Source: Salipaludibacillus neizhouensis (GTDB lineage: Bacteria; Bacillota; Bacilli; Bacillales; Salisediminibacteriaceae). Taken from it: DNA of 64,000 bases. Made by a program: the position numbers and the translations under genes. The notes under the pieces were generated by a model. The model was not told the DNA's origin. It made no database searches and worked only from the letters and a program-made list of their open reading frames with translations. The stretch lies in the NCBI RefSeq assembly GCF_002886185.1, contig NZ_KZ614147.1, positions 1,027,187-1,091,186 of the forward strand, in the 5' to 3' direction. This document shows positions 465 to 63,038 of the stretch, piece after piece. Each line of letters opens with the position of its first letter. Positions within the stretch are counted from its first letter, which is position 1.

Positions 465-3400
465 ATGTATAAAAAGAATTTTGTCGTGTTTATGATTGTT
501 GTCTTATTCATATCGACGTTTGGAAATGTTGGTTCGTTTAATCACTCAACAGCAGAGGCCAATGATGTTGAGCAGCAAAGTTTTCGATTTGATTTTGGGA
601 CAGGCCCAGTAGCAGAGGGCTACACGCAGGTTACGAATACGATGGTATACGATAGTCAAACTGGGTACGGGATTGATAAGAATGTAGCTGAGCGAGATCG
701 CGGAGCACCAGATGATCTCAGACGTGATTTCATTCTTGATGGGGATTATGAATTTATGGTTGATATTCCTGACGGGGAGTATTTTGTCAGAATTATTGCA
801 GGGGATGACATTGCTTTTAACCGGACAGGTTTTACGGTTGAAGGAGAAGACAAAGGTAATATCTCTTCAAGCGCTGGCGAATATGCGGAATTAACTACTA
901 TGACGACAGTATCAGACGAACAGTTAAATATCGACATCAGAGAAAATGGTCGGATTAATGGAATTGAAATTACACCTATGTCTGAACTAACTGGCTTAGA
1001 AGTAGAGTCTAAATCTCTTGGAATGCAAGAGTCAGTTACTTTAACTTGGGACAGCAATGATGCAGCTGTAAGCTACCAGGTTTATCGAAAAGCTGAAGGT
1101 GAAGAAACATTTTCTAAAATAGGCAGTAGTGATACAAATAACTATACCGATGAAACAGCAGAATTAGGTTATTCGTATACCTATGCAATAACATTTATGA
1201 ATGAACAGGGTATTGAATCACCAAACAGCAATGAGGTCGAGGTTGACATGTTTGATGAATCGGTCACAGTCCCGGCGGCTCCCGGTAATCTTGAGGTGGA
1301 AGATGCTACTGCCGAATCTGTGTCCATTTCTTGGAGCGACACGGATGATGCAATTAAATATTATGTCTACAGATCAAGATTTGAAGATGACAAATTTTCA
1401 AAAATTGGTGTAGCAGAGGAATCTGCATTTACAGATGATTCAATCTCCACTTTCGCACATTATTATTATAAAGTTCGAGCTGTTAATGAAGGAGGGATAT
1501 CCGAGTATTCAGACCCTCTAGAATCACCGATTGTTGCTGAACGTTTGCGGCAAATGGAAAAGTTAAATCGCGCACCAGTTGCGGTTGATACTGAAGATGG
1601 GATTTATGTCGGGTGGAAAATGCTCGGTACGGACCCACAAGAAGTGAGTTTTGACTTGTACCGTGATGGTGAAAAAATCAATGATACTCCTATTACAGAG
1701 AGTACGAACTATCTTGATGAGGGCGGGACGGTATCATCCACTTACCAAGTTCAAGTCAATAATGGTAGTGGTGAATCAGAAACGGAAACATTTGAAGTAT
1801 GGAATGAACAGTTTTCTAGTATTCCGCTTGATAAGCCAGAAGGTGGAACGACTCCCGATGGTGTAGATTTTGAATACTCCGCAAATGACGCGAGTGTGGG
1901 AGATGTTAACGGAGATGGTAACTACGAGGTCATTTTAAAGTGGAATCCGTCTAACGCACAAGATAATTCACGACCAGGGTATACCGGGAATGTTTATATA
2001 GATGCGTATACATTGGAAGGAGAAAGGCTTTGGAGAATTGATGCAGGAAAGAATATCCGAGCTGGGGCTCATTATACACAATTTCTAGTCTATGATTTTG
2101 ATGGAAACGGAAAATCAGAAGTGGTCTTTAAAACAGCTGATGGTACTGTAGACGGACAAGGAACGGTGATTGGAGATGCAGATGCCGATCATAGAAATAG
2201 TGCGGGATATATATTAGAAGGAGATGAATTTTTAACGATTTTTGACGGAGAAACAGGGGCAGCGCTCGATACAATTGATTATAATCCACCAAGAGGAAAT
2301 GTAAATGACTGGGGTGATGGATACGGAAACCGAGTCGATCGTTTCCTAGCTGGAGTTGCTTACTTGGATGGAGAAAGTCCAAGCATTGTCATGGCACGGG
2401 GTTATTACACAAGAGCAGTTCTTGCAACGTATGATTTTAAAGATGGTAAATTACAGGAAAACTGGGTTTTTGATAGTGATGAAGAAGGTAATGGTGCTTA
2501 CGCGGGACAAGGTAACCACAGTCTTTCCATTAACGACGTAGATGGAGACGGATATGATGAAATTGTTTACGGTGCTGCGGTGATAAATCATGATGGCACT
2601 GGTCTTTATTCTACTGGCTGGGGACATGGAGATGCGCAGCACGTCAGTAACTTAAATCCCAACCGAGCGGGTATGGAAATTTATGGGGTTCAAGAATCAT
2701 CAGGATCACCGGTTGGTTATGGCATTCGAGATGCAGAAACTGGCGACTTGCTGTGGGGAGTGGAGACTGGATCTGATGTAGGTCGCGGTCTTGCTGCGGA
2801 TATTGATCCAAGATATGATGGAGCAGAGCTTTGGGCTTCTGATAGTTGGGATGGAAGCAGTGGTGGTAGTGGTTTATTCTCTGTAGAAGGGGAGCGAATT
2901 ACAGATAAATCTCCAGCTTCTATTAACCATGCAGTATGGTGGACTGGTGACTTATTACGAGAACTACTAGACCATGATTTTGCTGAAGGCAGCGATACGT
3001 ATGGGGTAGGACGAATTGACAAATGGAATTGGGAGAGTGAACAGTTAGAAAATGTTCTTACTCCAGAAGGCACTCGTACAAGTAATGGTACGAAAGGAAA
3101 TCCAACGTTGCAAGCCGATTTATACGGAGACTGGAGAGAAGAAGTGATTTGGGCTTCTGCTGATAGTGAAGAGCTTCGTATTTATACGACAACGGACGTG
3201 ACAGAAGAAAGAATTTTCACATTGATGCACGATCCTACGTATAGACTAGGTGTAGCATGGCAAAATGTGGCTTACAATCAGCCTCCACATACCGGATTCT
3301 TCCTCGGACACGGTATGGAAATGCCTCCTATGCCAGCAATTACGACAGGAGATGAAGTCACAGAACCAGAACTAGAGCTAAGTTTTGAAAACCTATCTTC

Positions 3401-3626
3401 ATTAACAGAAGAATATGTTCTGGCGAATAGCGGTAAAAAAGGAAAAGTGAACGGATTTCTAGCAAAAGTGAATGAAGCAATGAGTTCAGATGAAAAAGGA
3501 AACATAAAAGCAAGGAACAACCAACTTGGTGCATTTATTAATCACGTGGAAGCACAAACTGGTAAAGCACTTACCGAAGAACAAGCTGAAGTTTTAATAA
3601 GTATGGCACATCAATTGCAAAAATAA
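465..3626 (+). CDS. Secreted rhamnogalacturonan lyase (PL11) with two Fn3 domains and a C-terminal FIMAH-like domain
   Basis: A large extracellular enzyme expected to cleave the rhamnogalacturonan-I backbone of pectin by beta-elimination. Residues 1-32 form a signal peptide (basic start, hydrophobic core, AEA-N junction). Residues about 37-170 are a beta-rich domain of the type seen in front of rhamnogalacturonan enzymes (RFDFGTG at the start). Two fibronectin type III repeats follow (about 176-262 and 272-357). The YesW-like PL11 beta-propeller spans about 362-950, with repeated Asp/Gly-rich calcium-loop motifs such as DVNGDGNYE, DFDGNGKSE and DVDGDGYDE. A helical FIMAH-like domain ends the protein (about 970-1053). 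At 1053 residues it is longer than plain YesW because of the extra modules. The ATG follows TTTGGAGGGATTTC. It stands alone between a cre-like site and a terminator. Enzyme class is confident; the role of the C-terminal domain is not known to me. Confidence 0.93.
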   Translation: MYKKNFVVFMIVVLFISTFGNVGSFNHSTAEANDVEQQSFRFDFGTGPVAEGYTQVTNTMVYDSQTGYGIDKNVAERDRGAPDDLRRDFILDGDYEFMVDIPDGEYFVRIIAGDDIAFNRTGFTVEGEDKGNISSSAGEYAELTTMTTVSDEQLNIDIRENGRINGIEITPMSELTGLEVESKSLGMQESVTLTWDSNDAAVSYQVYRKAEGEETFSKIGSSDTNNYTDETAELGYSYTYAITFMNEQGIESPNSNEVEVDMFDESVTVPAAPGNLEVEDATAESVSISWSDTDDAIKYYVYRSRFEDDKFSKIGVAEESAFTDDSISTFAHYYYKVRAVNEGGISEYSDPLESPIVAERLRQMEKLNRAPVAVDTEDGIYVGWKMLGTDPQEVSFDLYRDGEKINDTPITESTNYLDEGGTVSSTYQVQVNNGSGESETETFEVWNEQFSSIPLDKPEGGTTPDGVDFEYSANDASVGDVNGDGNYEVILKWNPSNAQDNSRPGYTGNVYIDAYTLEGERLWRIDAGKNIRAGAHYTQFLVYDFDGNGKSEVVFKTADGTVDGQGTVIGDADADHRNSAGYILEGDEFLTIFDGETGAALDTIDYNPPRGNVNDWGDGYGNRVDRFLAGVAYLDGESPSIVMARGYYTRAVLATYDFKDGKLQENWVFDSDEEGNGAYAGQGNHSLSINDVDGDGYDEIVYGAAVINHDGTGLYSTGWGHGDAQHVSNLNPNRAGMEIYGVQESSGSPVGYGIRDAETGDLLWGVETGSDVGRGLAADIDPRYDGAELWASDSWDGSSGGSGLFSVEGERITDKSPASINHAVWWTGDLLRELLDHDFAEGSDTYGVGRIDKWNWESEQLENVLTPEGTRTSNGTKGNPTLQADLYGDWREEVIWASADSEELRIYTTTDVTEERIFTLMHDPTYRLGVAWQNVAYNQPPHTGFFLGHGMEMPPMPAITTGDEVTEPELELSFENLSSLTEEYVLANSGKKGKVNGFLAKVNEAMSSDEKGNIKARNNQLGAFINHVEAQTGKALTEEQAEVLISMAHQLQK

Positions 3627-3633
3627 TGTGTTG

Positions 3634-3669
3634 AGGAAAGGGGCTGCCCAATTTGGGTAGCTTCTTTCA
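3634..3669 (+). terminator. Terminator after the rhamnogalacturonan lyase
   Basis: The arms GAAAGGGGCTGCCC and GGGTAGCTTCTTTC surround an AATTT loop just past the stop codon and end in a short T-rich tract. Confidence 0.75.
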
Positions 3670-3777
3670 TTTTAACTATCTAGGAACTATACTTTCTGAA
3701 CGAAAGAGGACGCTAGGACTAATCCATTTTCCTTTTTCGAACTAAATTCCACCGATAATGCACGTATCTCTCTAACA

Positions 3778-3825
3778 AACAGCACGTTTCTCCTATAGAA
3801 ACGTGCTGTTTCTATAGGAGAAACG
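3778..3825 (+). other. Overlapping, mutually exclusive hairpins upstream of the sigma factor
   Basis: Two perfect 14-bp stems share sequence. Stem A pairs 3778-3791 with 3797-3810 (AACAGCACGTTTCT with AGAAACGTGCTGTT, 5-base loop). Stem B pairs 3785-3798 with 3812-3825 (CGTTTCTCCTATAG with CTATAGGAGAAACG, 13-base loop). They cannot form together. Neither is followed by a T-run. The region lies about 100 bases before the sigma-factor gene; a switch function is only a possibility. Confidence 0.6.
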
Positions 3826-3834
3826 CAATTTATC

Positions 3835-3905
3835 GTCATTCGCTCGATTTTCGATAGCGCTCTAAAATGAAGTTACCGCGGAATAAGCGGAAGCGCGCTT
3901 CCAAG
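3835..3905. repeat. Possible degenerate copy of a dispersed GC-richer repeat
   Basis: This short stretch is GC-richer than its surroundings (GATAGCGCTC, ACCGCGGAATAAGCGG, GAAGCGCGCTTCC) and loosely resembles the better-preserved elements at 14398 and 30735. Such degenerate non-coding repeats are common in Bacillaceae intergenic regions. The similarity is partial, so the family assignment is weak. Confidence 0.35.
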
Positions 3906-3918
3906 CAGGAGACATCCC

Positions 3919-4440
3919 TTGGAGAAAATGGAGACAAGAAATGACTATGAATTTGAGAAGGTTTGCGAACAGTTTATGCCGATGATTTATGGGCTCATTC
4001 GCAAGTGGAATCTAGGCATGGAAAAAGAAGAGTACATTCAAACTGGAAGAATTGCTTTATATGAGGCTTGGTCAAGATATGATGAACAACTTGGGGCTTT
4101 CCCGGCGTATGCGAAAAGCTATGTATATGGACGGATCCAGCAGTCACTCGAAAAAAAAGAGCGATGGAACTCCAGACATGTCGCCACGGAACCGTTTATC
4201 ATGAGCGAAACAAGTCTTCTAATTGTTGGGAACGAAGAAGAGTTGCTGGTTTTGCAAGATTGGCTTTCGCGAACAAGTTTAAGCCCGAGAGAAAAAGAGT
4301 GGGTACGCGAATCCTTATTCTATGGTTCTAAATCAACAGAAATAGCAGAATCTAGAAACGTTTCTGTTTCTACTGTGAAAACGTGGCGAAAAACTGCTTT
4401 GAAAAAGTTACGTGCAGAAAATTTTGATATAATGTTTTAA
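3919..4440 (+). CDS. Small sigma-70 family RNA polymerase sigma factor
   Basis: A 173-residue protein with a sigma region 2 near residues 10-80 (helices around FMPMIYGLIRKW and YIQTGRIALYEAWSRYD) and a region 4 helix-turn-helix near 115-170 (SPREKEWVRESLFYG then STEIAESRNVSVSTVKTWRK). Region 3 is absent, as in ECF-like factors. TTG is taken as start because AGGAG lies seven bases upstream; an ATG nine bases further has GGAG only three bases away. No anti-sigma gene adjoins it. The next genes make nucleotide sugars, but a terminator follows this gene, so it is probably monocistronic. Its regulon cannot be inferred. Confidence 0.8.
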   Translation: MEKMETRNDYEFEKVCEQFMPMIYGLIRKWNLGMEKEEYIQTGRIALYEAWSRYDEQLGAFPAYAKSYVYGRIQQSLEKKERWNSRHVATEPFIMSETSLLIVGNEEELLVLQDWLSRTSLSPREKEWVRESLFYGSKSTEIAESRNVSVSTVKTWRKTALKKLRAENFDIMF

Positions 4441-4446
4441 AGGTTG

Positions 4447-4485
4447 TAGCAAAAGGTTTTTTGACCCTTTTGCTATAATCTTTTT
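4447..4485 (+). terminator. Terminator after the sigma factor
   Basis: The stem TAGCAAAAGG/CCTTTTGCTA is followed by TAATCTTTTT within 10 bases of the stop codon. Confidence 0.85.
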
Positions 4486-4686
4486 GAATATATCGAAATA
4501 AATCATATATTTTAAACGAAAAGAATATAAGAAAAAAATTCAATGAATTAGTAAATTGTTTCAGGTTTCTGTCTAAGATGGTAAACTTATATTATTAAAT
4601 GTTAGATCAAATGGAATGCTTAAATATACATACTGAAGGGTAACAAAAAGAAAAGAGTATTCTTAAACGATGAGGGTGTGGAAAGA

Positions 4687-5853
4687 ATGAAAATTGCAGT
4701 CGCTGGTACAGGATATGTAGGGTTATCAAATGCAGTTTTACTAGCTCAAAACAGTGAGGTAGTTGCAATTGATATCATTAAAGAAAAGGTTGACATGATT
4801 AATCGAAAGGAATCACCGATTGTAGATCATGAGATAGAGAAGTTTTTGGCAACAAAAGAATTAAATCTTGTTGCTACAATGGATACCCATCTGGCATACA
4901 AGGATGCTGAGTTTGTCATTATAGCAACTCCGACCGATTATGATCCTTTAAAAAACTATTTTAATACATCTACAGTTGAAAAAGTTATCGAAACGGTAAT
5001 GAATATAAATCCAGATGCAGTAATGGTGATTAAATCCACGGTTCCAGTAGGATACACGAAAGAAATTAAAGCAAAATATAAAACTGATAATATTATTTTT
5101 TCTCCGGAATTTCTCCGGGAAGGAAAAGCTCTCTATGATAACCTCCATCCATCACGAATTATCGTTGGAGAAAAATCAAACCGGGCAGAGAAATTTGCAA
5201 GTTTATTGGTGAATGGTGCTGAGAAGAAAGATATCGATGTTTTATTCACAGACTCGACGGAAGCTGAAGCAGTCAAATTATTCTCAAATACGTATTTGGC
5301 ACTGCGAGTTGCTTATTTTAATGAGCTAGATACTTATGCTGAAACAAAAGGACTGGATTCAAAGCAAATCATTGAAGGGGTAGGACTTGATCCGAGGATT
5401 GGTAATCACTATAATAACCCATCATTCGGATATGGTGGATATTGTTTACCAAAAGACACCAAACAACTACGAGCAAACTATGAAGACATTCCAAATAATC
5501 TCATCGGGGCAATCGTAGATGCAAATAGCACCCGAAAAGATCACGTAGCAACTAAAATAATCGAAAAAGATCCGAAAATAGTAGGAATATACAGATTAAC
5601 GATGAAGACGGACTCTGACAACTTCAGAGCTTCAGCTATACAGGGAATTATGAAGAGAATTAAGTCAAAAGGGATCGAAGTTGTTGTCTATGAACCAGTT
5701 TTGAAAGAAGAAGAGTTCTATCACTCCCGAGTTATCAAAGACTTTGAAGAGTTTAAGGAAATTTCTGATATCATTGTCTCAAATCGTTTAAATCCTGAAT
5801 TAATTGATGTAAAAGATAAAGTTTATACAAGAGACTTATTTAATATTGATTGA
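4687..5853 (+). CDS. ugd: UDP-glucose 6-dehydrogenase, short form
   Basis: Oxidises UDP-glucose to UDP-glucuronate with two NAD+ in the cytoplasm, supplying glucuronate for acidic wall or capsule polymers. The protein has 388 residues, the length of the E. coli-type short family. An N-terminal Rossmann motif GTGYVG lies at residues 7-12, the KSTVPVG signature and FSPEFLREG follow, and the catalytic Cys is at about residue 253 in [10 protein letters not shown]. The C-terminal UDP-binding domain is complete. ATG at 4687 is preferred over an in-frame GTG nine bases upstream because GAGGGTG sits at normal distance from the ATG. It precedes an epimerase and a second dehydrogenase but is separated from them by a hairpin, so it may be transcribed alone. 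Confidence 0.93.
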
Positions 5854-5859
5854 TGCTTG

Positions 5860-5893
5860 GAAGTCACTTATCAAAACTTTGGTAAGTGACTTC
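5860..5893 (+). terminator. Hairpin after ugd
   Basis: A perfect 11-bp stem, GAAGTCACTTA/TAAGTGACTTC, begins a few bases after the stop codon. It lacks a clean T-run, so it may be a weak terminator or an mRNA-stabilising hairpin. Confidence 0.6.
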
Positions 5894-6044
5894 GTCCATG
5901 TGATTTTATAAGCTCTTGTATTGATCATATAAAAGAGCTTGGTGATAAGCCTGTTGATACAAATAGGAATACACTAGAGAATGTAGTAAAATAGAGAAAG
6001 TTATTAATATTATAAATGAAAATATAAATATGAAGAGGTGGACT

Positions 6045-7022
6045 ATGATCTTAGATCGTTTTAAAAGTAGTGATAAGTTTTTAATCACAGGTGGAGCCGG
6101 CTTCATTGGCTCGAATCTGGCTGATTTTTTATTACAGCATGGTTTTGAAGTCAAAGTTTTAGATGATTACTCTAACGGACGTCATGAAAATATCAAAGAT
6201 TTGAAGTCAAAATATGAGTTTGAATTTATTGAAGGCGATATTCGAGATTTAGAGACGTGCAAAGCAGCGGTCAAAGGTGTCGATTATGTCCTTCATCAAG
6301 CTGCATGGGGTTCGGTACCCCGCTCGATTCGTATGCCACTTGTGTATGATGAAGTTAACATTCACGGAACATTAAATATGTTAGAAGCTGCAAAAGATGC
6401 AGGTGTTAAGAAGTTTGTGTACGCCTCATCTTCGTCAGTATATGGGGATGAACCCACTCTTCCAAAAGTAGAAGGAAGAGAAGGAAAGCCGCTCTCGCCA
6501 TATGCGATAACGAAAAAAGTAAATGAACTTTATGCAAAGAACTATTTCGAATTATATGGGTTAGAAACAGTTGGCCTACGTTATTTTAATGTATTCGGAC
6601 GAAGACAGGATCCGCACTCTACATATGCAGCAGTCATACCTATTTTCATTCGGGATTTACTGAAAGATCAAGCACCGAATATTAATGGGGATGGTTCTCA
6701 GACAAGAGACTTTACGTATATTGATAACGTGATTGAAGCTAATCTACTGGCATGCTTAGCTGGTACAGAGGCAAGTGGAGAAGCATTTAATATAGCTTAT
6801 GGAAAGAAAATTACACTGAATGAATTGTACGAGATTATTTGTAAGTTGTTAGATAAAGAGATTAAACCTAATTATCGAGAGCCGCGTGAAGGCGATATCC
6901 CTCACTCTCTAGCTGATATTTCTAAAACTAAAAAGCTTTTAGGATATGATCCGAAGATCGATGTCTTTGAAGGATTAGAACGAACAATGGCATGGTATGT
7001 AGAAAACTTAGGAGCTAAATAA
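6045..7022 (+). CDS. UDP-N-acetylhexosamine 4-epimerase of the WbpP/TviC type
   Basis: An extended short-chain dehydrogenase/reductase expected to interconvert UDP-GlcNAc and UDP-GalNAc (or UDP-Glc and UDP-Gal) using bound NAD+. The dinucleotide motif GGAGFIGS lies near residue 17, the ASSSSVYG serine stretch follows, and the YAITK catalytic Tyr/Lys pair is near residue 152. Blocks GLRYFNVFGRRQDP and NGDGSQTRDFTYIDN closely resemble WbpP/TviC. I start at the ATG at 6045 because AGAGGTGG lies directly before it; the ATG at 6030 lies on that ribosome site. It sits 26 bases before a TviB/WbpO-like dehydrogenase, the partner found beside this enzyme in Vi and O-antigen clusters, which favours an N-acetylated substrate. 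Confidence 0.85.
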   Translation: MILDRFKSSDKFLITGGAGFIGSNLADFLLQHGFEVKVLDDYSNGRHENIKDLKSKYEFEFIEGDIRDLETCKAAVKGVDYVLHQAAWGSVPRSIRMPLVYDEVNIHGTLNMLEAAKDAGVKKFVYASSSSVYGDEPTLPKVEGREGKPLSPYAITKKVNELYAKNYFELYGLETVGLRYFNVFGRRQDPHSTYAAVIPIFIRDLLKDQAPNINGDGSQTRDFTYIDNVIEANLLACLAGTEASGEAFNIAYGKKITLNELYEIICKLLDKEIKPNYREPREGDIPHSLADISKTKKLLGYDPKIDVFEGLERTMAWYVENLGAK

Positions 7023-57812: not shown

Positions 57813-57859
57813 GAAAAAAAGCTTCAGAAAAATTAAAATAAATTTTTCTGAAGCCTTTT
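57813..57859. terminator. Terminator of the agr-type operon
   Basis: GCTTCAGAAAAATT and AATTTTTCTGAAGC pair perfectly, with a T7 run on the minus strand and TTTT on the plus strand. It closes the operon just after the peptide gene. Confidence 0.9.
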
Positions 57860-57877: not shown

Positions 57878-58000
57878 TTACTTTGAGACTCTAAGACTTT
57901 TAGGAATTTTTGGAACATGGACGAGCGGACTAGAGGCACTAACAAAAACGGTAGACAACTGACGAGTCATACTTGATAACACTTTAGCTGTTTTTCTCAT
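57878..58000 (-). CDS. agrD: AgrD-like autoinducer prepeptide with serine in place of cysteine
   Basis: A 40-residue prepeptide gene overlapping the 3' end of agrB by 17 bases, with AAAGGGGGTGATAATC before its ATG. It has the three-part AgrD plan: an amphipathic leader (RKTAKVLSSMTRQLSTVFV), a short core (SASSPLVHV) and a C-terminal recognition tail (PKIPKSLRVSK) whose P-x-x-P-x-x-L pattern is usual in AgrD and cyclic-lactone autoinducers. There is no Cys, so ring closure would use Ser21, Ser23 or Ser24, as in the serine lactone GBAP of the enterococcal Fsr system. AgrB would cut after the core. The peptide identity is inferred from position and pattern. Confidence 0.78.
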   Translation of the reverse strand: MRKTAKVLSSMTRQLSTVFVSASSPLVHVPKIPKSLRVSK

Positions 58001-58574
58001 GATTATCACCCCCTTTCAAGGTAAGAATATTTATTTTGGAAATGAAATTAATACCATAGGGAGTCAGCAATAATGATTGAAGTAGTGCACCTAGAATAAG
58101 TCCTGGTTGATGGAAGAAATGAAAGAACAATAAAGATAAGGCTAACCATAAATAGGCCAGTTGTTTCTTTTTAAATTCCCATTCTTTTGAGTGAGTCACT
58201 TGGTGAGGTTCATAATAGGGGGCATAAATGATAACTAACAAAACGATTATGATCAGATAAGTATAAATAAGAATAGAAGATATCGGGAAAAAGCTAAAGG
58301 CTAAAATTATTAAAATACTGGTTAATGAGCAAGCGAGTGAATGATCTAAATGAGCACCACCAGTTAACATGCGTAATACCATAAAGGAAACGGCCACTTG
58401 CAAGAGAATAAATAAGTGGTCTAATAAGAACCCAGTAATGAAAAGCAGGAGAAACGTAAATAGTAAGTTAAATATAATGGTGAAGCCAAAGACTAATACT
58501 TCTACAGAATCAGTTTCATCGGGATTGATTCTTTTAATCAAGTCTGCGAACAAAATAGCCCATCTTTCAAACAT
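57984..58574 (-). CDS. agrB: AgrB family membrane peptidase
   Basis: A 196-residue membrane cysteine peptidase expected to cut and cyclise the AgrD-like peptide. It starts MFERWAILFADLIKRINPDETD; several hydrophobic helices follow. Arg68, His75 (TGGAH) and Cys82 (SLAC) match in spacing the essential Arg70, His77 and Cys84 of S. aureus AgrB. I start at 58574 because GGGAGGAAACCTGC precedes that ATG and the length becomes normal; a longer in-frame start at 58739 has no ribosome site and adds an unrelated 55-residue stretch. The gene follows the AgrC-like gene after 183 bases and overlaps agrD. Confidence 0.9.
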   Translation of the reverse strand: MFERWAILFADLIKRINPDETDSVEVLVFGFTIIFNLLFTFLLLFITGFLLDHLFILLQVAVSFMVLRMLTGGAHLDHSLACSLTSILIILAFSFFPISSILIYTYLIIIVLLVIIYAPYYEPHQVTHSKEWEFKKKQLAYLWLALSLLFFHFFHQPGLILGALLQSLLLTPYGINFISKINILTLKGGDNHEKNS

Positions 58575-58757
58575 GCAGGTTTCCTCCCTTAATATTTTAT
58601 GAGATTGAGAGCAACGAGTGATGTATTGGAATTCAAACGATACATAAACGAAATCTGGTAATTCATAAAACGTAAGGGAGTGGTTTTCTAAAGCCTCTGT
58701 TAAATCCTGTTGTTGTAATGTTACGAATTCACCCATCAAAAAATCTTAAGGAAGAAG

Positions 58758-60038
58758 TTAAACAAAGGAGCAAATTATAGTTAGTTTAACTGGGTTTAAT
58801 TCATAGTCAATTTTCGCATTGTCTTGTTTAAATAAGGTAATCGCATCAATAATCTTTAAATTGGATGATGTCTGTGCATCAACATCGCATGTAATCAGAA
58901 ATTCCATTTCTTGTTCGCGAATACTGATATGGAATTCAATCTTTTTATCAATGGATGAGGGTGTTTGATAGAGAACGAATAAAAGTTCATCCATAATGAT
59001 ATTCAAATATTTAATTTGCCTTAATGTAATCCGGCTGTTGTCTGATTCAATATTGGCCGAAACAAAGATGATTATGCCAAATAGTCTAGCTAAGCGACGT
59101 TTGTTAATTAACAGAGCATACAGAAGTTCGTCTAAACCTTCCAAACCTTTTCTAAGATCATTTTTGGTCGTCCAAGCTGGTGACGCTGTAAAGTTTTGTT
59201 CTTTTTCTATAAATGCTTTGATAGATTGAATGGAATTATCTTTTTCTGTTAGCTTTAAAATTGCATTGTTACGAACTTCCTTCTCTCTTACTAGTTTTTC
59301 AATAATTGTACTTGCTTGTTGATCTTGATCTAAAAATATTTTTTTGGCTTCCATCAGTCGCTTCGTTTGAAATTGAGTGTACAGGATATGATATCCAGAC
59401 ATAATGATAAAGATCACGATAATGCATAATAAAACGAGTGTGTCTCTTATCACTAATTCACCTTCCACTAATACAAAAGCCGCTAGGCAAATAAATACAT
59501 AAGTAAGTACAGAAAGAGTAATGATGATATTTCTAAGTCTTTTTGTGAGATTAGGTTCTCTTAAGTGAACCCTTAATTCATCCAAATAATACGTGTATTT
59601 ACTTAAGAGATAGCATAGCGAAACTGTAATTATTATTGTGAGGATTTGTAAAATAACTGGTAGGGATAGATTTGAAAATATAATGTCAAAATAACTGAAA
59701 TTGGAAAGGGACATCATCATTTCCGCAATTAAAAGTTGAATGAAAATATAAAATCCGTAGCCTATCCCAGTGATAACGAACATTTCAAGATAATTTACTC
59801 GGAAAAATTGTTTGACTAATACCATTAATAATAAGATTTGTAATGCGATAATGACTGCTATTGGCAAGGGAGTATATCGTATTACTACCGCAAACAGGCT
59901 CATGATTAGTGCAATGAGAATAATTCTTTTTATATACTTTCGATAGAAATAACCTAGTAAAATTACGGGAAGGGATAGTAGGGTTATCCATTCCATAATA
60001 GAAACGACATTTTTAATTATAAAGTACAAAGCATTCAC
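58758..60038 (-). CDS. AgrC-like 7-TM membrane sensor without kinase motifs
   Basis: A 426-residue protein. Residues about 5-225 contain seven hydrophobic segments in the arrangement of AgrC-type peptide sensors, and the C-terminal half (about 230-426) looks like a cytoplasmic dimerisation helix plus an ATPase-like fold (KYLNIIMDELLFVLYQTP, KIEFHISIREQEMEFLITCD). The expected phospho-acceptor His, the Asn of the N-box and the Gly-rich ATP-binding boxes are all missing. It is therefore a probable pseudokinase receptor. The GTG start is 27 bases after the histidine-kinase stop with only a weak ribosome site, suggesting coupled translation. Signalling would need the separate kinase upstream. Confidence 0.7.
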   Translation of the reverse strand: MNALYFIIKNVVSIMEWITLLSLPVILLGYFYRKYIKRIILIALIMSLFAVVIRYTPLPIAVIIALQILLLMVLVKQFFRVNYLEMFVITGIGYGFYIFIQLLIAEMMMSLSNFSYFDIIFSNLSLPVILQILTIIITVSLCYLLSKYTYYLDELRVHLREPNLTKRLRNIIITLSVLTYVFICLAAFVLVEGELVIRDTLVLLCIIVIFIIMSGYHILYTQFQTKRLMEAKKIFLDQDQQASTIIEKLVREKEVRNNAILKLTEKDNSIQSIKAFIEKEQNFTASPAWTTKNDLRKGLEGLDELLYALLINKRRLARLFGIIIFVSANIESDNSRITLRQIKYLNIIMDELLFVLYQTPSSIDKKIEFHISIREQEMEFLITCDVDAQTSSNLKIIDAITLFKQDNAKIDYELNPVKLTIICSFV

Positions 60039-60065
60039 CAGATTTCTTTTGAAGACATAGGGGAA

Positions 60066-60869
60066 TTAATTCCTGTAATACGTATGCTTACTCGCTGGCA
60101 ATCTCATAATAACGTGTGTACCTGTCTGTTTTTGATGATTTTTAATTTCAAGCGTTCCATTTAAAGTCTCGATAATAGCCTTGCAGATTGGTAACCCTAT
60201 ACCGGTTCCTTCATCTTTTGTTGTATAAAAAGGAAAGAAGATTTGATCAATATGCTCCTCAGCTATCCCGGGACCATTATCGGAAATATTGATATATACA
60301 TAGTCTTCGTTTTTAGTTAACGTGATATCAATTTTTCCTTTGTTGTTCTCGAAGGCTTCTATAGAATTATTGAACATGTTTGTAAGAACTCGTTCAAACC
60401 GTGTCTCATTCCCGGTAATATATGTTTCATCTGTTGTTTGTGCGCTAAAGGAAACGTTGTCGAAGGATTGATTCATTTCAAATAGACGAATCACTTTATT
60501 TATGCTTAATTTAACATCAATGATAGATAGATTATCCTGATGCAGATGGGTATTCGATAAACTTAACAACTCCTGTATTAAAAGCTCCATTTTTACGGCT
60601 TCATCTTTAATGATAGAAATATAGTTTGAGACGTTAGGGTCGCCTTTTACTGTATCATCGCGCTCTAAAACCTGAGTGAATCCAATAATAGAAGTAAGTG
60701 GATTTCGAATTTCATGAGCGAAAAATGCAGACATTTTGCCAATTGCTTTGTGGTAGTCATCTGTCGATTGGTTGCCTTCTGTTTGATCGAATGACTTATC
60801 TTGATTTAATTCAATCTGAGTCTTTGTATTTCCGTTCTTAGTCGGTTGTTTCTTTAAAAAAGGCCACAC
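60066..60869 (-). CDS. Soluble histidine kinase resembling sporulation-type kinases
   Basis: A 267-residue kinase without membrane segments or sensor domain. After a polar 35-residue start it has the HisKA motif FFAHEIRNPLTSIIGFTQVL with His52, an N-box (FERVLTNMFNNSIEAF), G1 SDNGPGI, the F-box PFYTT and G2 GTGIGLPICK. The HisKA sequence is close to that of KinA-KinE and similar Bacillus kinases, which feed the Spo0F phosphorelay. GTG follows AGGAGTGTTGTA. It is the first gene of the operon with the AgrC-like protein, AgrB and the peptide. No response regulator is nearby, so its partner is elsewhere. TATAAT (minus strand) lies at 60943-60948. Confidence 0.87.
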   Translation of the reverse strand: MWPFLKKQPTKNGNTKTQIELNQDKSFDQTEGNQSTDDYHKAIGKMSAFFAHEIRNPLTSIIGFTQVLERDDTVKGDPNVSNYISIIKDEAVKMELLIQELLSLSNTHLHQDNLSIIDVKLSINKVIRLFEMNQSFDNVSFSAQTTDETYITGNETRFERVLTNMFNNSIEAFENNKGKIDITLTKNEDYVYINISDNGPGIAEEHIDQIFFPFYTTKDEGTGIGLPICKAIIETLNGTLEIKNHQKQTGTHVIMRLPASKHTYYRN

Positions 60870-60987
60870 ACTACAACACTCCTAGACAATAAGCACTACA
60901 ATCAAAAAGAGAAACGTTTATTTTAAATATTCCCTTTTATACATTATAGTGTAAAAAAACCGATAAAGTAACATGTATTTTGTACAA

Positions 60988-61037: not shown

Positions 61038-61910
61038 TTATTTCGTTGCTTTATTTTCCATAAGAGAACCAATAAACAGAGCAATTCGTAACCTGAGTGT
61101 TTCATCATCCTTTTTAAAATCAGTCCCCATCAGTTTCTCGCACTTTTTCATTCGATAAATAACCGTATTCCGATGTATATACATTTCTTTTGCTGTGTCG
61201 GAAATCTGGCAATTATTATTTAAATAGCTTGTTAACGTATTGACAAGGTCTTCTTTTTCCTTGTCCTGCGGATAAGCTAATTCCTTTAAAGACGATTTAT
61301 AAAACTCTTTTAACTTTTGCAGGGGAATAGTTTTGAATAACTCTGTCAGTTCTTTAATGCGATAGTTTTTAATAAATCTTTTTGTGTTTTCTCTATAGCC
61401 GGAGCGCAATGCGTCCACGGCTTCATGGAACACAGTGGGAAGGTCTGTCACTGTTTCTTTGTAATTACTGATCCCGAAGGATAACGAAGAATTCAACGTT
61501 TGAAAAATATCCAATTGAATGGCGGCAATCGTTTCTTGAACTTTTTGCTCCATCATTTCATCATAGAATTCAAAGCCTAATAAAATGATAAATAAATCAC
61601 CTTTTGTAAACAAAATACTATTTTCAAATTGACTACCTAACAAAGACTCAAGTAATTCATATATTCTATCCCGCTGGTGACTGATTTCTCTTTCCGTTTG
61701 CATAGGTGCAGGGTATAAATGAAAATCAGAAGCAGCATCCATTTTACAAGAAATGCATATATAGTGAAGCTTTTTATCAAGCTTGTATTCGCGACCTCTG
61801 TTTAGAATCTCCTCAGGTGAGACAACTTCCATTAAATCTGTAAAAAATTCATTTTTCAGTCTACGAGAATGTTCTTCAATCGCGTGTATTTTCATAAATT
61901 CAAGACCCAA
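61038..61910 (-). pseudogene. PucR family regulator lacking its N-terminal half
   Basis: The frame of 290 codons matches only the C-terminal part of PucR regulators: the linker MKIHAIEEHSRRLKNEFF, the degenerate GGDEF-like region and the helix-turn-helix (DTAKEMYIHRNTVIYRMKKCEKLMG). The sensor domain of about 240 residues is missing, and the sequence changes to pucG coding sequence of opposite orientation at about 61897-61902. By chance a TTG with GAGGTG upstream stands inside the pucG remnant, so a DNA-binding fragment could still be made. It is distinct from the intact PucR at 41408. Confidence 0.8.
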
Positions 61911-63038
61911 GCTTCACCTCGATGATGAATGAAACAATGGAGATGCTCCGGAAAGTTCTGCAAACAGGTAACGAGTGGGCTTTTTCCGTCGATGGGACTT
62001 CCCGGGCTGGTATAGAAGCAATGCTTTGCAGTATTATTGAAGAAAAAGATAAAGTTCTTATTCCGGGATTTGGACGATTCGGCTTTTTACTAGCAGAAAT
62101 AGCAGAGAGATGTGGAGCTGAGGTCTATTTTATGGAATGTGAATGGGGCGAAGTATTTGATCCTGAAACGGTTATTGCGGAAATAAAAAAAGTCCGGCCA
62201 AAGGTTGTGGCAATGGTTCATGGAGATACCTCAACTGGCCGAATGCAGCCATTAAAAAAGATAGGGCAAGCTTGTCGTGAAGCGGACGCACTTTTTGTCA
62301 TTGATGCGGTGGCAACTGTAGCAGGAACAGAAGTGAAAACAGATGAGTGGATGATTGATGGTTTGATTACGGGTACACAAAAATGTATTTCGGTTCCGTC
62401 AGGGATGGCACCTCTTACATACAATGACCGAATTGAAAAAGTTTTAGCACAACGAAAATCGATTGAAAAAGGTCTTGCTTCTTCACAAAAACTTTCGAAC
62501 GATTTAGGCAGGCGTATTCGCAGTAATTATTTGATTTAAGTCAACTGCAGGATTACTGGAGCCCAGCCCGGCTTAACCATCATACGGAAGCTACATCGAT
62601 GCTTTATGGATTATATGAAGGCTTAAGAGTCATTTTGGCGGAAGGATTGGAAGAACGGTTTAACCGTCACCGATTAAATGAAAAGGCACTAATGGCTGGA
62701 ATTGAAGCAATGGGGCTCTCGTTATTTGGAGATCCGGACTGCAAGCTGCCAACTGTAACATTGTGGTGATTCCAGAAGGGGTGGACGGAGATTCCGTCAG
62801 ATCGATGTTACTAGGGGAGTTTGGGATTGAAATTGCGAGTTCGTTTGGTCCGTTACACGGAAAAATTTGGCGAATCGGTACGATGGGCTATAGCTGTCAA
62901 AAGAGAAATATTCTTTTAACTTTAGCAGCGTTTGAAGCAGTGCTCATTCGGCATGACGTGAAGGTGAATACTGGTATGGGGGTGCAGGCAGCACTTAATG
63001 TGTATCAGCTAAAAGAAACTGTTGTAAATAACAGCTAG
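61901..63038 (+). pseudogene. pucG: PucG-like ureidoglycine/alanine-glyoxylate aminotransferase, 5'-truncated and frameshifted
   Basis: Three consecutive frames together match PucG, a PLP aminotransferase of purine (allantoin) breakdown. Homology begins abruptly at QDPSFTSMMNETMEMLR, so about 40 N-terminal residues are gone. Frame 1 holds FSVDGTSRAGIEAML, VHGDTSTGRMQPL and the PLP-Lys block GTQKCISVPSGMAP, ending IRSNYLI-stop at 62539. One missing base near 62530 moves reading to LQDYWSPARLNHHTEATSML, which stops at 62769; another near 62760 restores VVIPEGVDGDSVRSMLLGEF and IASSFGPLHGKIWRIGTMGY to the end. It cannot make an active enzyme. The truncation point coincides with that of the pucR remnant. 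Confidence 0.88.

What the first reader, a model, noticed from the sequence alone, without database searches (positions are those of the whole stretch)
57878..60869. agr-type signalling operon with a split receptor and kinase and no response regulator
Four minus-strand genes in order: soluble HisKA/HATPase kinase, 7-TM AgrC-like protein, AgrB, AgrD-like peptide, closed by one terminator. AgrB keeps Arg68/His75/Cys82 with the spacing of S. aureus AgrB. The usual AgrC-AgrA pair is absent: the membrane protein has no phospho-acceptor His and no ATP-binding boxes, while an intact kinase without any sensor is encoded beside it. The kinase HisKA block resembles KinA-KinE, and no response regulator is present. 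Inference: the peptide is sensed by the pseudokinase, which controls the soluble kinase, and phosphate may enter the Spo0F/Spo0A relay, linking cell density to sporulation.
Basis: partly seen in the sequence, partly recalled or inferred. Interest (0 to 1): 0.85.

Follow-up and report, generated by a model that had tools for sequence, protein, structure and literature searches.

The report
Agr signalling through separate sporulation-type kinase
A four-gene cell-to-cell signalling operon in Bacillus relatives whose peptide receptor has lost its own kinase activity and sits next to a separate kinase that carries the recognition code of sporulation kinases, suggesting a direct line from cell density to the decision to make spores.

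Summary
Window 57878-60869 (minus strand) encodes a soluble HisKA kinase, a 7-TM AgrC-derived pseudokinase, AgrB and an AgrD-like peptide; the nearest receiver gene is 82.8 kb away. I found 15 such loci in 14 genomes; 10 keep all four genes in order, and none has an adjacent receiver; one host genome has no LytTR match. The receptor family matches AgrC (hhalign 99.2%, E 1.4e-19) but 0 of 13 members has histidine in the phospho-acceptor column. Two otherwise near-identical contigs share a 100% identical kinase while receptor (from residue ~80) and AgrB fall to 61-77% DNA identity: a specificity cassette as in S. aureus agr, with the kinase constant. An ASSP-core peptide without core cysteine lies by AgrB in 14 of 14 loci that have AgrB. 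The kinase groups with this genome's orphan HEIRNPLT kinases; its specificity residues (TSGFQV) are one change from verified Spo0F kinases, as in 13 of 13 agr kinases, against two or more in 17 of 17 HisKA domains near receivers. Phosphotransfer and receptor-kinase contact are unproven, and spo0B is interrupted in this genome. A new agr variant.

The parts
60066..60869 (-). soluble orphan histidine kinase (P0001, 267 aa): low-confidence N-terminus without recognised sensor domain, HisKA with HEIRNPLT H-box, intact HATPase_c; specificity residues TSGFQV
58758..60038 (-). AgrC-derived 7-TM pseudokinase, presumed peptide receptor (P0002, 426 aa): long helix 198-265, C-terminal GHKL-like fold without ATP lid; phospho-His replaced
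57984..58574 (-). AgrB peptidase (P0003, 196 aa), Arg68/His75/Cys82 conserved
57878..58000 (-). AgrD-like pro-peptide (P0004, 40 aa), core and tail SASSPLVHVPKIPKSL, no cysteine
57816..57859 (-). intrinsic terminator hairpin closing the operon
   Evidence: z -7.1
60943..60971 (-). possible promoter of the operon: TATAAT with a poor -35 (TTACTT), 17 bases between
   Evidence: weak, and consensus matches in the region (20) do not exceed shuffles (mean 18.1, sd 4.3)

Best explanation
This is an agr-type peptide signalling operon in which the classical AgrC-AgrA pair is replaced by a split sensor. AgrB cuts AgrD and releases a small peptide, most likely a serine-lactone ring around S-S-P-L-V. The AgrC-derived 7-TM pseudokinase binds it outside the cell. 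Its cytoplasmic long helix and dead kinase domain then switch the separate soluble histidine kinase encoded beside it on or off. That kinase, an orphan of the KinA-KinE type, passes phosphate to Spo0F and so into the Spo0B-Spo0A relay, coupling cell density to entry into sporulation. Shown by sequence: gene set and order, conservation, loss of catalytic residues in the receptor, intact kinase, Spo0F-type specificity residues, no receiver nearby, a receptor/AgrB cassette that differs while the kinase stays constant (one pair of genomes). Inferred: ring chemistry, peptide binding, receptor-kinase contact, phosphotransfer to Spo0F, effect on sporulation.
For: Conservation: P0002 relatives in 9 of 397 genomes of the order (7 of 135 genera), named relatives and a class-wide search: 15 loci in 14 genomes, 10 with all four genes in order. 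Receptor: hhalign to 12 canonical Bacillales AgrCs 99.2%, E 1.4e-19; phospho-His column has 0 His of 13, the two N-box Asn columns 1 Asn of 13 each; Foldseek finds AgrC cytoplasmic domain 6e95/6e52 at 4-5e-5 and AgrC ATPase 4bxi at 3e-4. Cassette: L020 v L019 are 98-100% identical in kinase and flanks apart from the 100-base bin at the contig edge, 61-77% across receptor and AgrB; peptide core V to L. Kinase: in one supported group (100/98) with the 12 other orphan HisKA kinases of the genome and one paired kinase; 13 of 13 agr kinases (12 distinct) are 1 residue from a verified Spo0F-kinase code, 17 of 17 HisKA domains within 3.5 kb of a receiver are 2-5 away (code from PMC6136694); Spo0F of this genome reads QGILEVD as in B. 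subtilis. No LytTR match in genome G200. Spo0F and Spo0A in 11 of 11 host genomes searched.
Against: No experiment. spo0B of this genome is broken by an insertion, so the relay is probably open here. The best named NCBIfam model for the kinase is AtoS (165 bits), ahead of KinD (140 bits), both far below their cut-offs. The agr kinases have FF before the histidine and no Lys at H+10, which 10 of the 12 other orphans have. Orphan status plus six residues is a prediction signature, not proof; 2 of the 12 other orphans are 2-3 residues away. A histidine five columns after the phospho-acceptor column is kept in 11 of 13 receptors, though not in the window's. One locus (L021) has receptor-AgrB-AgrD without an adjacent kinase, though the same genome keeps a kinase-receptor pair elsewhere (L014). 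A receiver with its own kinase lies 4.4 kb from the operon in L020.
Confidence: 0.6

Rival explanations
1. Same split receptor-kinase logic, but the kinase phosphorylates a different unlinked response regulator (or Spo0A directly), not Spo0F.
For: The genome has 62 receiver matches; the sixth specificity residue of the agr kinases (V, F, Y or M) differs from the L or I of B. subtilis kinases.
Against: Residues 1 and 3-5 (T, G, F, Q) are those of the B. subtilis Spo0F kinases in 13 of 13, residue 2 is S or T; M and F at position 6 occur in D. acetoxidans orphan kinases that the authors say may target Spo0F (PMC6136694 Table 1, passages; the one they assayed has L).
Confidence: 0.2
2. The receptor-like protein does not talk to the kinase; the two are merely co-transcribed, the kinase sensing something else and the receptor acting through an unknown partner.
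For: No contact evidence; receptor (AgrC-like) and kinase (HisKA) belong to different kinase subfamilies, so ordinary heterodimers are unlikely (inference); L021 lacks an adjacent kinase.
Against: Kinase directly followed by receptor in 14 of 15 loci, including L014 where AgrB and AgrD are absent; neither protein looks like a complete signalling device alone.
Confidence: 0.12
3. A decaying agr system: the receptor is a dead relic and the operon has no function.
For: Lesions in some relatives: a transposase gene inside the receptor gene in L004/L013, AgrB in two frames in L017, an IS110-like element between AgrB and AgrD in L018; neighbours of the window operon look decayed.
Against: Intact frames at 32-43% identity to the window's receptor with 29 invariant columns of 13 sequences and a strongly conserved peptide point to long purifying selection; the catalytic residues are missing throughout the family rather than in one member.
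Confidence: 0.05
4. AgrB-AgrD make a peptide bacteriocin or other secreted product rather than a density signal.
For: AgrB-like peptidases might mature other cyclic peptides (recalled, untested).
Against: An AgrC-derived receptor gene accompanies AgrB in 14 of 14 loci with AgrB, and receptor and AgrB differ together as a cassette; the loci were found through the receptor, so the first count leans that way.
Confidence: 0.03

Closest known systems
Staphylococcal/Listeria agr (AgrB, AgrD, AgrC, AgrA)
   Same: AgrB with conserved Arg/His/Cys, AgrD-type pro-peptide, receptor homologous to AgrC over most of its length, variable receptor/AgrB cassette between constant flanks (S. aureus pattern recalled)
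   Different: no AgrA; receptor is a pseudokinase; kinase is a separate HisKA protein; peptide core has no cysteine; gene order kinase-C-B-D
Enterococcus Fsr (recalled; listing of PMC7028047 only)
   Same: a serine-based lactone peptide is expected here too
   Different: Fsr has an active FsrC kinase and a LytTR regulator FsrA (recalled)
Sporulation kinases KinA-KinE
   Same: orphan HisKA kinases with TxGFQ[LI] specificity code (PMC6136694, passages)
   Different: this kinase has no recognised sensor of its own; sensing seems delegated to the agr receptor; sixth residue V
Clostridial agr-sporulation links (C. difficile Agr1, RgaS-RgaR)
   Same: an AgrD peptide promotes sporulation
   Different: there through an unknown pathway (PMC11210211 passages; PMC10602386 listing only)
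Regulatory pseudokinases RetS and DivL (recalled)
   Same: a degenerate histidine kinase tunes a real one
   Different: not quorum-sensing peptide receptors of AgrC origin

Membership tests
agr quorum-sensing system | AgrB peptidase with catalytic Cys/His | tested here: met
   PF04647 80 bits; Arg68/His75/Cys82 invariant in 9 of 9
agr quorum-sensing system | AgrD-type pro-peptide beside AgrB | tested here: met
   TIGR04223 17.1 bits, below the cut-off of 19; but an ASSP-core peptide with P-x-[IV]-P tail lies by AgrB in 14 of 14 loci with AgrB
agr quorum-sensing system | AgrC receptor with active kinase | tested here: not met
   homologous to AgrC but phospho-His absent in 13 of 13 and ATP-site residues lost
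agr quorum-sensing system | AgrA-type LytTR response regulator encoded alongside | tested here: not met
   nearest receiver 82.8 kb; no receiver in 13 of 14 relatives' stretches (flanks 0.4-8 kb), the one found having its own kinase 4.4 kb away; genome G200 has no LytTR match
agr quorum-sensing system | secreted cyclic (thio)lactone signal | not testable with these tools
   no Cys in the core; serine lactone is inferred
Spo0F-directed sporulation kinase | orphan HisKA kinase | tested here: met
Spo0F-directed sporulation kinase | TxGFQ[LI]-type specificity residues | tested here: inconclusive
   TSGFQV, one conservative change from KinC TSGFQI; the sixth residue is outside the B. subtilis set
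Spo0F-directed sporulation kinase | N-terminal PAS domain (frequent, not universal) | tested here: not met
   no PAS match in the Pfam scan; residues 1-37 below pLDDT 50
Spo0F-directed sporulation kinase | phosphotransfer to Spo0F | not testable with these tools
   needs biochemistry

The most novel reading that the evidence does not exclude
A quorum-sensing peptide system wired straight into the sporulation phosphorelay: an AgrC descendant that has given up catalysis acts purely as receptor and allosteric switch for a separate KinC-like kinase, and receptor-AgrB cassettes are exchanged between strains to change signal specificity without touching the kinase or the relay.
Probability: 0.5. Interest if true: 0.88.

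Novelty: new variant of a known kind. Interest (0 to 1): 0.74.

Why it matters
If true, it gives sporulation in this Bacillus lineage a dedicated cell-density input with a named receptor, signal and kinase, something still missing for the agr-sporulation link of C. difficile (PMC11210211 passages: AgrD1 acts through an unknown pathway). It would also be a natural case of a histidine-kinase receptor reduced to a regulatory pseudokinase acting on a kinase of another subfamily, and a case of agr-style specificity switching with a fully separate output module.

Tried and rejected
AgrA lost only here: rejected, because no relative has a receiver next to the operon. In nine host genomes LytTR matches lie on other contigs or at least 105 kb off, or (G200) are absent. 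Of 36 strong AgrB matches (E below 1e-20) in 397 genomes of the order (12 weaker rows not followed), 10 are of this type (L067 starts at a contig end and was typed by its AgrD), 19 of the other 26 have a receiver in the fetched stretch and 7 do not (up to about 5 kb each side, some cut by contig ends).

Receptor as an active kinase: rejected by the missing catalytic columns. Sequence searches of P0002 and its profile against solved structures gave nothing useful, and Pfam no kinase family in any of 13 members; the best was YukC, 6.5e-5, in one. Foldseek's first three hits are DesK, and whole-model TM-scores are low (0.2-0.3 by query).

Control by sigma-H: a perfect sigma-H-like site upstream of the kinase in L014, one mismatch in L015 and L017, none in the window; 7 of 12 loci with at most 2 mismatches against a shuffle mean of 2.2 and maximum of 7: inconclusive (consensus recalled). 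Spo0A boxes: no consistent site.

Distance correlations between kinase, receptor and AgrB (10 of 15 loci, those lacking or breaking a gene and L096 left out) are all positive and do not separate co-evolution from shared descent. The two L-type peptides (L010, L022) do not go with similar receptors (60.9%), unlike the two V types. Base composition (31-34% GC) does not mark the operon as foreign.

The count (15 distinct peptide tails) used a pattern that demands [AG]SSP and so cannot show invariance; the 14-of-14 count rests on what lies beside AgrB in each locus.

Paper searches in which I saw no description of this arrangement. I judged by titles and starts of abstracts in lists that were partly capped (for instance 20 of 270 and 12 of 214 papers), and most subscription papers are not held, so absence in print is not shown.
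Full report
WHAT IS THERE. The minus strand of window 57878-60869 holds four compact genes: a 267-aa soluble histidine kinase (60066-60869), a 426-aa membrane protein (58758-60038), AgrB (57984-58574) and a 40-aa peptide (57878-58000). A strong terminator follows (-21.9 kcal/mol, z -7.1, 0 of 200 shuffles as good). Pfam gives HisKA and HATPase_c for the kinase, AgrB for the third gene, and no kinase domain for the membrane protein. The peptide reaches 17.1 bits with the AgrD model, below its cut-off of 19.

NO RESPONSE REGULATOR. The whole genome holds 30 HisKA and 62 receiver matches; the receiver nearest to the operon is 82.8 kb away.

IT IS A CONSERVED SYSTEM. The membrane protein has relatives in 9 of 397 genomes of the order, in 7 of 135 genera; in the family search 2 of 35 genomes match, one of them this one, and none of the 7 other genomes of its genus. 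Named relatives include Halalkalibacter urbisdiaboli, Bacillus solitudinis, Caldalkalibacillus mannanilyticus, Halalkalibacterium halodurans and Lederbergia galactosidilytica; a class-wide profile search (6 of 398 genomes, two of them weak matches to other agr types) added G468 and again the C. mannanilyticus locus (G496). In total I count 15 loci in 14 genomes, setting aside a remnant (L012) and an AgrB-AgrD pair at a contig end (L067). Ten loci keep kinase, receptor, AgrB and AgrD in that order (window, L003, L005, L006, L009, L010, L016, L022, L023, L096). Three have lesions: a transposase gene inside the receptor gene (L004/L013), AgrB in two frames (L017), an IS110-like element between AgrB and an intact AgrD frame (L018). 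H. urbisdiaboli has the set in two parts: kinase + receptor (L014) and receptor + AgrB + three AgrDs (L021). Of 14 relatives' stretches scanned with a receiver profile (flanks 0.4-8 kb), 13 had none; the exception (L020) has a receiver with its own kinase on the other strand 4.4 kb away. LytTR matches in nine host genomes lie on other contigs or at least 105 kb from the operons, and genome G200, whose receptor is identical to that of H. halodurans DSM 497, has none. As positive control, 19 of the other 26 strong AgrB loci of the order do show a receiver in the same kind of stretch.

THE RECEPTOR IS AN AgrC PSEUDOKINASE. Profile comparison with 12 canonical Bacillales AgrCs from the control loci gives 99.2% probability and E 1.4e-19 over model columns 1-402, at 16% identity. 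In the aligned columns the phospho-histidine is never histidine (0 of 13), the two N-box asparagines are kept in 1 of 13 each, and the glycine boxes fall outside the alignment; a histidine five columns later is kept in 11 of 13 but not in the window's protein. The predicted structure (mean pLDDT 79, pTM 0.59, 13 sequences) has seven membrane-type helices, a long helix 198-265 and a C-terminal alpha/beta domain in GHKL order without an ATP lid. Foldseek ranks DesK first and the AgrC cytoplasmic kinase (4-5e-5) and AgrC ATPase domain (3e-4) among its best hits. Loss of catalysis is thus family-wide, with 29 invariant columns kept.

A SPECIFICITY CASSETTE WITH A CONSTANT KINASE. Two contigs, L. 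galactosidilytica DSM 15595 (L020) and one labelled B. subtilis DE0224 (L019), are 98-100% identical per 100-base bin over the kinase gene and for 2.7 kb downstream of AgrD, apart from the first bin at the contig edge (54%); between, from receptor residue about 80 to the end of AgrB, identity is 61-77% (84% in the first, transitional bin; AgrD bins 93 and 98%). The kinases are 100% identical, the receptors 72.8% (99% in residues 1-80, 62-72% after), the AgrBs 68.2%; the peptides differ in the core by V to L. The DSM 15595 receptor is closer to that of another strain with the same V peptide (L023, 79.6%) than to its near-twin; the two L types do not show this (60.9%). This resembles S. aureus agr groups (recalled) and separates a variable receptor/processing module from a constant kinase. 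It rests on one pair of genomes.

THE PEPTIDE. In 14 of 14 loci with AgrB an adjacent small frame carries an ASSP core followed by two variable residues, then H, N or Y, and a P-x-[IV]-P tail. None has a cysteine in the core, though two have one in the leader. In the canonical loci 12 of 14 AgrD candidates have a cysteine core such as SSCFWF or TCFLGL. By position against the AgrD tail I predict a five-residue serine lactone S-S-P-L-V; the S. aureus comparison and ring size are recalled and inferred.

THE KINASE POINTS TO SPO0F. A tree of the genome's 30 HisKA domains plus agr kinases puts the agr kinases in a supported group (100/98) with the 12 other orphan kinases and one paired kinase (orphan = no receiver within 3.5 kb; L041 is just outside at 4.0 kb). 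Davidson et al. (PMC6136694; abstract and passages) list six specificity residues: KinA TAGFQL, KinB TVGFQL, KinC TSGFQI, KinD TGGFQL, KinE TAGFQL, Dtox_1918 TTGFQL. Read at H+7, 8, 11, 12, 14, 15 (positions deduced by me), the window kinase is TSGFQV. All 13 agr kinases examined (12 distinct) are one residue from one of these; the 17 HisKA domains near a receiver (hybrid kinases included, one protein counted twice) are two to five away; 10 of the 12 other orphans are zero or one away, two are two and three away. Spo0F of this genome, next to an aldolase gene, reads QGILEVD as in B. subtilis. Of the 14 host genomes 11 were searched: all have Spo0F and Spo0A, and a Spo0B match. The kinase lacks any recognised sensor: residues 1-37 are below pLDDT 50, with a short aromatic/basic start that may hold it to the membrane (inference). 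Among solved structures its third-best match is sporulation kinase B of Geobacillus (3d36, 3.4e-25; organism recalled); among NCBIfam models AtoS scores above KinD, both below cut-off.

RESULTS AGAINST. In the window's own genome spo0B is in two pieces either side of an IS110-type transposase gene (L099), so the relay is probably open in this strain. The agr kinases keep FF before the histidine and lack the lysine at H+10 that 10 of the 12 other orphans have. No tool here could test contact or phosphotransfer.

VERDICT. What it works like: an agr system whose output is a sporulation-type kinase. Membership: it fails two defining features of canonical agr (active AgrC, adjacent AgrA), so I file it as a new agr variant, not as a standard agr operon.

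Noticed in passing
L099 (G000:C1:2663800-2670500), 1721-4109: spo0B of the window's genome is interrupted by an IS110-type transposase gene (2396-3670); obg follows intact and an orphan HEIRNPLT kinase (4200-5324) lies directly upstream.
   Followed up: partly
L063, L064, L065, L066, L077 (probably L075): A second receiver-less agr type in Bacillales: a small membrane protein of about 155-165 aa (202-aa frame in L064), a 276-287 aa GHKL kinase with RHDLNNHL and intact boxes, AgrB, and (seen in L063, L064, L066, L077, L075) an AgrD with a serine core; no receiver in the fetched stretch.
   Followed up: partly
L097 (G764), 5336-6500: AgrC-like protein reduced to its membrane part (221 aa) overlapping an AgrB gene; no kinase or receiver hit in the 11.5-kb stretch.
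   Followed up: no
G000:C1:2413471-2413782 and G000:C3:21101-21412: The genome has two Spo0A-type output domains (frames of 289 and 286 aa), against one in each of the 10 other genomes searched.
   Followed up: no
window 61038-63038: Neighbouring genes look decayed: a PucR-like regulator of 290 aa whose best matches in three congeners lie in frames of 553-571 aa (43-47% identity), and a PucG-like aminotransferase in three pieces (names recalled).
   Followed up: partly
L019 (NZ_VTQV01000041.1): A contig labelled Bacillus subtilis DE0224 is nearly identical to Lederbergia galactosidilytica outside the agr cassette, so the species label is doubtful.
   Followed up: partly
L021 9826-10280: Three tandem AgrD genes with cores SSPLA, SSPFS and SSPFS.
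   Followed up: no
L014, 95 bases upstream of the kinase: Perfect sigma-H-like promoter (0 of 300 shuffles as good); one mismatch in L015 and L017, none in the window.
   Followed up: partly
window 58575-58757: 183-base spacer between receptor and AgrB genes, where seven relatives measured have -23 to 16 bases; purpose unknown.
   Followed up: no
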